A DNA stretch of 64,000 nucleotides from Hahella sp. KA22 (GTDB lineage: Bacteria; Pseudomonadota; Gammaproteobacteria; Pseudomonadales; Oleiphilaceae), in contig NZ_CP035490.1 in the NCBI RefSeq assembly GCF_004135205.1, positions 6,851,001-6,915,000 of the forward strand. The letters are read 5' to 3'. The notes beneath the pieces were generated by a model that was not told where the DNA came from, did not search any database, and saw only the letters and a program-made list of their open reading frames with translations. The translations under genes and the position numbers were made by a program. Positions 54,632-59,185 of the stretch are shown here, piece after piece; within the stretch, counting starts at the first letter, position 1, and each line of letters starts with the position of its first letter.

Positions 54632-54782
54632 TCGAATATGAGCCATTGTCTCCAGCCGGGGCTCAAGCGCTACTTTATTATTAACATGGCAATGATATTG
54701 GCATATTAATCATCAGGCGCATGGATGCGCCTGCGCGGAGGCACAGAGCCCCAACCGATAGACTTAATCCACTTCGGCGCGA

Positions 54783-57751: not shown

Positions 57752-58072
57752 CTAATGTCTCATGACGACATCGGGATCAAAGGTCAGGCCTTTCGTCTCT
57801 ACCTTTTTTACCCCGCGCACGCTCTTGGCGGCTTTCACTGCTGCTATTTGTTCACCGGCGCTGTGCAAGTGGCCGGTTAACGTCACCACACTGTCTTTAG
57901 TGCACACTCCGACGCTGAGTCCGGGCGACTTTTTGTCGAGAAACAACGAGGATTTAACCTTCATGGTTATCCAGCTGTCTTTAATGAAGCTGTTAGCCTC
58001 TTTTGTCGAGCTTTCTGAGTTTGCGGCCGCCGTTGGCGAAGCGTCTTCGGCCTCAACTTTATTTTTGTCCAT
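57752..58072 (-). CDS. BON-domain protein 2
   Basis: 106 residues from ATG 58072, chosen for its AGGAGG SD 8 bases upstream. It starts MDKNKVEAEDASPTAAANSE, a disordered N-terminus with no signal peptide, then one BON domain (about 31-100): IKDSWITMKVKSSLFLDKK, VVTLTGHLHSAGEQIAAVKA, VRGVKKVETKGL. Lack of a signal suggests a cytosolic location, unlike the other BON protein here. Confidence 0.85.
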   Translation of the reverse strand: MDKNKVEAEDASPTAAANSESSTKEANSFIKDSWITMKVKSSLFLDKKSPGLSVGVCTKDSVVTLTGHLHSAGEQIAAVKAAKSVRGVKKVETKGLTFDPDVVMRH

Positions 58073-58167
58073 GTCTGCACCTCCTGTTACCTGTTTCACA
58101 TTGGAAAGACGAGCATATACTCGAGAATGACGGTAGTCGGTGCGCTACCGCACTGACCTGTATGTGA

Positions 58168-58229
58168 GACAGGGCCTGACATGTGCAGGCCCTGTCGTTG
58201 CAGGCAAATAGAAGGATGCTATTTGCCTG
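58168..58229. repeat. Twin perfect hairpins, 11-bp stems with 7-base loops
   Basis: GACAGGGCCTG (58168-58178) / CAGGCCCTGTC (58186-58196), then after a 4-base linker CAGGCAAATAG (58201-58211) / CTATTTGCCTG (58219-58229). Both stems are perfect, equal in size, with 7-base loops. No T-run follows on either strand, so they are not ordinary terminators. Confidence 0.7.
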
Positions 58230-58330
58230 CCGGATTAATATACTGCGGTTTCACCGCCCCTCGTCCGCAACGACGGCTGGCGCCCGATTCTGACGATCTC
58301 ACCTCACCACACAGGATGGCGTATTTCGGT

Positions 58331-59185
58331 ATGAAGCGATACAAGATCGGGCATGAGACAACCTATTCCTTCTCCGGCTTGGTACAGTTGTACCCGCATA
58401 CACTGCGGCTGCGCCCCAGAGAGGGTCATGAATTGCGGATTGAGTCCTCCAGGCTGGATATATCCCCTCCTGCGACCCTGCGCTGGCATCGTGACGTGGA
58501 GGGAAATTCCGTTTCCGTCGCCAGTTTTATCGACAAAGTGAAACGGTTGAGAATATACAGCGAAGTCCTCATACAGAAATACGATCTCGCTCCCCTTGAT
58601 TTCCTGGTGGCGGACTACGCCGTCGACTATCCATTTCACTATTTGGATGAAGACAGAGCGGTGCTCGCCCCCTACATCGATGACGCGTGCGGCGCTGATA
58701 ACGTTGGGCTGTCCGACTGGATCAACAAGCTGTGGCGGCATGGCGAAACAGTTCAGACCATCAGTCTGCTACTGCGATTAAACCACCACATTTTCCAGAC
58801 TATCGCCTACCGAAAACGCGAGGAGGAAGGCGTTCAGAGCGCGGAACGCACCCTCTATCTTGGCTCAGGATCCTGTCGGGATTCCGCCAACCTTTTTATG
58901 GCCTCCGCCCGACGGCTGGGCTTCGCCGCCAGATTCGTCAGCGGTTACATCTATGTCAACGGCATGTCGATGCAAGTGGGCTCCACGCACGCCTGGGCGG
59001 AGGTGTTCATTCCCGGCGCCGGCTGGAAAGGCTTTGACCCCACCCGGGGAACGATTGTCGGAGCTGAGCACATCGCTGTCGCTGTCGCCAGATTGCCAGA
59101 ATCGATCCCTCCTATCGCGGGCGACTTTTTTGGCGTTCCTGGTTCATCAATGGAGGTGAATGTCCGGGTAACGGACATCACTTAA
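58331..59185 (+). CDS. Transglutaminase-like protein 1 (with N-terminal Bact_transglu_N domain)
   Basis: 284 residues if started at ATG 58331, matching the family start MKRYKIGHETTYSFSGLV; an ATG at 58316 is the alternative. Residues 1-90 are the N-terminal domain of bacterial transglutaminase-like proteins (LYPHTLRLRPREGHEL). The catalytic domain has the triad Cys182 (GSGSCRDSANLF), His220 (STHAWAEVFI) and Asp236 (WKGFDPTRG). No signal peptide, so cytosolic. Probably an amidase or protease-like enzyme rather than a cross-linker. The next gene, 24 bases later, is a second such enzyme. Confidence 0.9.
   Translation: MKRYKIGHETTYSFSGLVQLYPHTLRLRPREGHELRIESSRLDISPPATLRWHRDVEGNSVSVASFIDKVKRLRIYSEVLIQKYDLAPLDFLVADYAVDYPFHYLDEDRAVLAPYIDDACGADNVGLSDWINKLWRHGETVQTISLLLRLNHHIFQTIAYRKREEEGVQSAERTLYLGSGSCRDSANLFMASARRLGFAARFVSGYIYVNGMSMQVGSTHAWAEVFIPGAGWKGFDPTRGTIVGAEHIAVAVARLPESIPPIAGDFFGVPGSSMEVNVRVTDIT

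What the first reader, a model, noticed from the sequence alone, without database searches (positions are those of the whole stretch)
58168..58229. Matched pair of perfect hairpins without T-tails
Two 11-bp stems with 7-base loops and a 4-base linker are a very regular structure between the BON gene and the transglutaminase genes. They lack terminator tails on either strand. They could be a protein-binding RNA element, an attenuator, or a REP/BIME-like unit.
Basis: seen in the sequence. Interest (0 to 1): 0.52.

Follow-up and report, generated by a model that had tools for sequence, protein, structure and literature searches.

The report
Truncated copy of a mobile hairpin repeat
The two neat hairpins are the surviving half of a small non-coding jumping element, present in about a hundred copies in this bacterium and apparently moved by an ordinary IS630-type transposase; they are not a special control element of the neighbouring genes.

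Summary
In detail: two perfect hairpins (11 and 12 bp stems, 7-base loops, 3-base linker, no T-tails) at window 58168-58230. They are the right-hand 75 bp (58166-58240) of a dispersed element whose usual full form is 148 bp with five hairpins. This genome holds 101 right ends and 89 left ends (0 for the control patterns); 81 pair as full elements, 74 of them exactly 148 bp. In seven clean comparisons with a genus mate, the empty site is exactly one TA, so insertion duplicates a TA. Both ends carry TATTAA-N3-GGCA, which is also the end of a 1,102-bp IS630-family insertion sequence in the same genome. That sequence was found only in the three of seven genus genomes with 47-198 copies. The window thing is therefore a truncated, old copy of an IS630-derived MITE, of the kind of RUP in pneumococcus. 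At this locus it diverges slightly faster than its flanks and is absent upstream of the same transglutaminase gene in two relatives, which speaks against a local RNA-control role. A REP/BIME reading is right in spirit (dispersed, mostly intergenic palindromes) but fails REP membership: no GTAG tag, no RAYT link. New member of a known kind, ordinary.

The parts
58166..58240 (+). right-hand half (positions 74-148 of 148) of the IS630-derived MITE; the finding itself
   Evidence: 94.7% identical to the family consensus over 75 of 75 positions; family copies
58168..58196 (.). hairpin 4 of the element: 11-bp stem, 7-base loop
58200..58230 (.). hairpin 5 of the element: 12-bp stem, 7-base loop; G-C at consensus pair 112/134 where most copies have A-T
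   Evidence: pair counts
58228..58240 (-). right terminal sequence TATTAATCCGGCA (read on the - strand), identical to 13 bp of the IS630 right end; 58239-58240 TA is the target-site dinucleotide
   Evidence: IS ends; TA empty sites at other copies
54679..54743 (+). second, independent fragment of the same element in the window: left 65 bp (hairpins 1-2 and part of 3)
   Evidence: 92.3% identity to positions 1-65; listed as a left end; not found in the matching stretch of G006
57752..58099 (-). BON-domain protein gene, divergent neighbour
   Evidence: PF04972, 47.1 bits
58331..59185 (+). transglutaminase-like protein gene, divergent neighbour; starts 90 bp after the element
   Evidence: PF08379, PF01841

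Best explanation
The hairpin pair is the surviving right half of an old copy of a non-autonomous miniature element (MITE). The full element is 148 bp including a TA at each end. It folds into five separate hairpins and has short imperfect terminal repeats TATTAA-N3-GGCA. Shown: about 100 copies in this genome, insertion at TA with TA duplication, ends shared with a 1,102-bp IS630-family insertion sequence in the same genomes, and insertion differences between close relatives. Inferred: the IS630 transposase binds the ends and moves the element in trans by Tc1/mariner-type cut-and-paste. Inferred: at this locus the left half was lost by deletion before the three species that share the copy split, leaving a fossil that can no longer move (one end missing). 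Any effect on the two divergent genes is incidental: an inert spacer, or a stable structure in the 5' leader if transcription crosses it.
For: Dispersion: 40 places scored of 124 first-look candidates; 49+52 right ends against 0+0 for the control; 45+44 left ends against 0+0; 81 of 89 left ends pair with a right end, 74 of the 81 exactly 148 bp (100 of the 101 right ends entered). Recent movement: 12 of 58 extracted full copies are identical at 12 different places. TA insertion: of 30 copies whose right flank was sought in G001, 20 matched and 18 were examined; 7 show exactly TA at the empty site. IS link: 6 DDE_3 transposases in G000, 5 of one IS family; its ends match both MITE ends (84.6% over 26 bases at L169, right end 12-13 bp exact); transposase is IS630 by NF033545, 235.5 bits against cut-off 100. 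Outside the shared TATTAA, the left ends match at 14 of 20 (P 3e-5 at fixed register). Co-occurrence: IS in G000, G001, G006 and none of G002-G005; right ends 101, 198, 47 against 1, 0, 16, 0.
Against: The MITE and IS share only about 20-26 bp per end, and no internal sequence match was seen, so the MITE is not a simple internal deletion of this IS; another IS630 could have been the original mover. G004 has 16 right ends without this IS, which needs later loss of the IS or another mover. Nine of the 18 examined flanks gave no clean TA (2 gave a 2-bp gap reading AA, 7 were too diverged), one showed a shortened element and one an element in the opposite orientation. Movement by the transposase was not tested. 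That the left half was deleted is inferred: no relative with a full copy at this locus was found.
Confidence: 0.9

Rival explanations
1. A REP/BIME unit in the strict sense: short palindromes moved as single-stranded DNA by a RAYT (Y1, HUH) transposase.
For: High-copy palindromic repeats, mostly outside ORFs; the genome has 4 Y1_Tnp/RAYT-like genes.
Against: No significant element match in the four RAYT loci (best E 0.62); no GTAG tetranucleotide within the window copy or seen in the full copies printed; TA target duplication and ends shared with a DDE-type IS630.
Confidence: 0.03
2. A locus-specific cis-acting RNA element or attenuator in the leader of the transglutaminase (or BON) gene.
For: Very stable, perfect hairpins 90 bp upstream of the transglutaminase start; copy shared by G000, G001 and G006; the hairpin 5 pair 112/134 is G-C here, a change on both sides from the common A-T; the + strand still folds in G006 (-26.5 kcal/mol).
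Against: The element is less conserved than its flanks between G000 and G006 (64/75 against 81/90, 52/60 and 777/855); no element beside the same gene in G004 and G002; about 100 copies stand at other loci; no Rfam family reaches its gathering score; no T-tail.
Confidence: 0.07
3. A bidirectional terminator repeat dispersed at gene ends.
For: GC-rich stems; mostly intergenic placement.
Against: No T-run on either strand; sits between divergent genes here; across copies with a callable gene on both sides, placement is not biased to convergent genes (9 convergent, 8 divergent, 22 tandem with ORFs of 100 aa or more).
Confidence: 0.05

Closest known systems
RUP (repeat unit of pneumococcus) with IS630-Spn1
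   Same: About 107 bp, about 108-110 copies, insertion at TA, ends like an IS630 in the same genome (passages of PMC2229807, and PMC3049150).
   Different: PMC3049150 describes RUP as tightly folded with its terminal repeats paired to each other; here the fold is a row of five separate hairpins and the terminal repeats do not pair with each other. No sequence comparison with RUP was made.
Correia/NEMIS elements of Neisseria
   Same: Small TA-flanked repeats of about 107-155 bp, stem-loop RNA (passages of PMC2229807); called IS630-derived in a passage of PMC2817692.
   Different: Terminal repeats of 24 bp there; here an imperfect TATTAA-N3-GGCA. No sequence comparison was made.
REP/BIME with RAYT (GTAG repeats)
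   Same: High-copy palindromic repeats outside genes.
   Different: No GTAG tag, no RAYT link, five-hairpin 148-bp unit, TA duplication.

Membership tests
IS630-derived MITE (RUP-like) | many near-identical short copies dispersed in one genome | tested here: met
IS630-derived MITE (RUP-like) | TA target-site duplication shown by empty sites | tested here: met
   7 of 18 examined sites show exactly TA; 2 others a 2-bp gap reading AA; the other 9 unresolved or different
IS630-derived MITE (RUP-like) | termini shared with an IS630-family element in the same genome | tested here: met
   transposase family
IS630-derived MITE (RUP-like) | long terminal inverted repeats pairing with each other (seen in some MITEs, not defining for all: repeats of 7-9 bp are listed for ERIC and RUP) | tested here: not met
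   only imperfect TATTAA-N3-GGCA; the fold is five separate hairpins
IS630-derived MITE (RUP-like) | mobilised in trans by the IS transposase | not testable with these tools
   only co-occurrence across seven genomes
REP/RAYT repeat | GTAG tag at the foot of the hairpin | tested here: not met
   GTAG/CTAC in 58101-58300 only at 58133 and 58145, outside the element; none seen in the full copies printed
REP/RAYT repeat | copies flank a RAYT gene | tested here: not met
   no significant match in the 4 RAYT loci
intrinsic terminator | T-run after the stem | tested here: not met
known structured RNA family (Rfam) | match above a family's gathering score | tested here: not met
   best overlap 26.5 bits against 42 needed

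The most novel reading that the evidence does not exclude
The five-hairpin design is itself maintained. Master copies keep their stems by compensatory change because the folded strand helps the element (for example by protecting it, by guiding transposase synapsis, or by making a stable RNA when transcribed), so this would be a MITE selected as a folded single strand although its mover is a double-strand DDE transposase.
Probability: 0.15. Interest if true: 0.45.

Novelty: new member of a known kind. Interest (0 to 1): 0.2.

Why it matters
It explains a striking structure as a mobile-element fossil and removes a false lead for RNA control at the BON/transglutaminase locus. The family is clean: about 100-200 copies with empty sites in a close relative and an intact candidate transposase. 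That makes it a usable case for asking how IS630-type MITEs spread, and a likely source of mis-annotated gene starts and spurious RNA candidates in this genus.

Tried and rejected
RAYT/REP origin: four Y1_Tnp genes exist but have no element nearby. Search for terminator and sigma-70-like promoter sites: nothing at the element. Rfam: only sub-threshold chance matches. The idea that the two half copies in the window (54679-54743 and 58166-58240, same strand) are one element split by a 3.4-kb insert: rejected as unsupported, because G001 and G006 hold the right half without the left half, and G006 lacks the left half in the matching stretch. Structure maintenance: over 56 distinct 75-base rows (103 of 121 extracted rows had length 75 and a score of 60 or more; 18 dropped), 94.3% of cells pair against 93.2% in column shuffles, and 6 of 23 pairs show a change on both sides against 1.7 in shuffles (0 of 500 reach it). 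Slid controls, however, reach 2-8 such pairs, though with far less pairing, so compensation is suggestive, not proven. Spread beyond the genus: 390 genomes of the order, 3 with a match, namely G000 itself and two 22-26-base GC-rich pieces judged chance; only 2 candidates per genome were scored. Plasmids and phages: no match. Genome contigs exact pattern: none, but near relatives may be left out there. Papers: Hahella chejuensis + miniature inverted-repeat 0; Hahella + insertion sequence + repeat 11, none on this repeat by title and abstract start; Hahella + MITE 1, off topic by title; Hahella + IS630 0 (search listings only). The genus name Hahella is my recall from genome size and contig length of a genus mate and comes from no call, so these paper searches rest on that guess.

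Full report
What is there. The two hairpins exist as described, with small corrections: stems of 11 and 12 bp, loops of 7 bases, linker of 3 bases, at 58168-58196 and 58200-58230. They fold far better than shuffled sequence (RNA z -6.95; DNA z -8.89) and have no terminator tail. They lie between a BON-domain gene on the - strand and a transglutaminase-like gene on the + strand, so upstream of both.

It is a repeat. A search of the window's own genome (6.96 Mb, one contig) with 121 bases around the pair gave 40 places scored of 124 first-look candidates; the 39 others are 91-96% identical over about 75-88 bases. Lining up 30 copies showed that the pair is only the right half of a longer unit. 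A directional pattern for the right end gives 49+52 places with 0+0 for the reversed control; a left-end pattern gives 45+44 with 0+0. Of 89 left ends, 81 pair with one of the 100 right ends entered, and 74 of these elements are exactly 148 bp (41 on -, 40 on +). The full element folds as five separate hairpins. Of 58 full copies extracted, 12 are letter-for-letter identical, which points to recent spread.

The window copy. Positions 58166-58240 match positions 74-148 of the unit at 94.7%; a different fragment, positions 1-65, lies at 54679-54743. The right half is present at the same place in G001 and G006 (82.7% to the consensus in G006), also without a left half, so it is an old truncated copy. 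Between G000 and G006 it is 64/75 identical, against 81/90 and 52/60 in the flanking intergenic DNA and 777/855 in the transglutaminase gene: no sign of local constraint. G004 and G002 have the transglutaminase gene (78% and 64% identical) but no element beside it.

How it inserts. I sought the right flanks of 30 copies in G001; 20 matched. I examined 18 of these (two, L154 and L160, were left out because their flanks were rearranged). Seven sites in G001 are empty with exactly TA between the flanks. Two have a 2-bp gap reading AA. One carries an element shortened by internal deletion and one carries an element in the opposite orientation. Seven were too diverged to read. Insertion thus duplicates TA, the habit of IS630/Tc1-mariner elements (named from established knowledge; RUP likewise, PMC2229807 passages). 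Target flanks lean to A/T-rich, roughly palindromic sequence.

What moves it. The genome has six DDE_3 (IS630-type) transposase places; five belong to one IS family. Its complete form is 1,102 bp and seven such copies were read in three genomes. Its ends and the element's ends share TATTAA-N3-GGCA, with exceptions in single copies. The left ends agree at 20 of 26 positions for L167 (14 of 20 outside TATTAA, P 3e-5 at fixed register) and at 84.6% of 26 for L169; the right ends share 13 bp exactly in L167. The protein is IS630 family by NCBIfam and Pfam. In the genus sample of seven genomes the IS is found in G000, G001 and G006 and in none of G002-G005, and right-end counts are 101, 198 and 47 in the first three and 1, 0, 16 and 0 in G002, G003, G004 and G005. 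G004's 16 copies without the IS fit a relic population but are not explained directly. The IS relatives outside the genus are at most 71% identical over most of the protein in the collection searched (74% for one partial match), where near relatives may be left out.

Function here. In a rough ORF test, 11 of 58 full copies (ORFs of 150 aa or more) or 17 of 58 (100 aa or more) lie inside an ORF, against 66% or 74% of all TA sites in the same stretches; placement between genes shows no excess of convergent pairs. The window copy lacks one end and so should be immobile (inference). A passive influence on the leader of the transglutaminase mRNA is possible and untested.

Do the stems evolve as stems? 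There are paired changes: A-T to T-A and G-C at pair 112/134 (for A-T and T-A; the window has G-C), and the stem variant of L137. The overall count exceeds column shuffles, but slid controls reach similar numbers of double changes. I therefore leave structural selection as an open, lesser possibility.

Comparison. It works like, and by the tested features belongs with, IS630-derived MITEs such as RUP. It differs in fold, a row of hairpins and not one long duplex (fold of RUP from a passage of PMC3049150). It is not a REP in the RAYT sense. In the library searched I found no paper on this family, on the recalled assumption that the genus is Hahella.

Noticed in passing
54679-54743: A second fragment of the same element in the window: the left 65 bp, downstream of another BON-domain gene; missing in the matching stretch of G006.
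   Followed up: yes
L155 (G001:C1:3170025-3170109 and flanks): At the TA site where G000 (L009) carries the element, G001 carries an element in the opposite orientation: either two insertions at one TA or an inversion of the element.
   Followed up: partly
G000:C1:3157905-3157940 (L140); G001:C1:2845602-2845637 and 6214765-6214815: Copies whose hairpin 5 loop is reverse-complemented, and a 51-bp palindrome with a right end on both sides, suggesting flips or template switches at the hairpin.
   Followed up: no
L136 (G000:C1:4288014) and L147 (G001:C1:418625): Shorter derivatives of about 75-85 bp that keep both ends but lack hairpins 4 and 5.
   Followed up: partly
58181-59185: The longest ORF for the transglutaminase starts at ATG 58181, inside the loop of hairpin 4; the Pfam match fits a start at 58331, so automatic annotation may start the gene inside the mobile-element remnant.
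   Followed up: partly
L048-L050 (G000:C1:5929391-5937118): Three Y1_Tnp/RAYT-like genes within 8 kb, not linked to this repeat; their own palindromes were not studied beyond a repeat scan.
   Followed up: no
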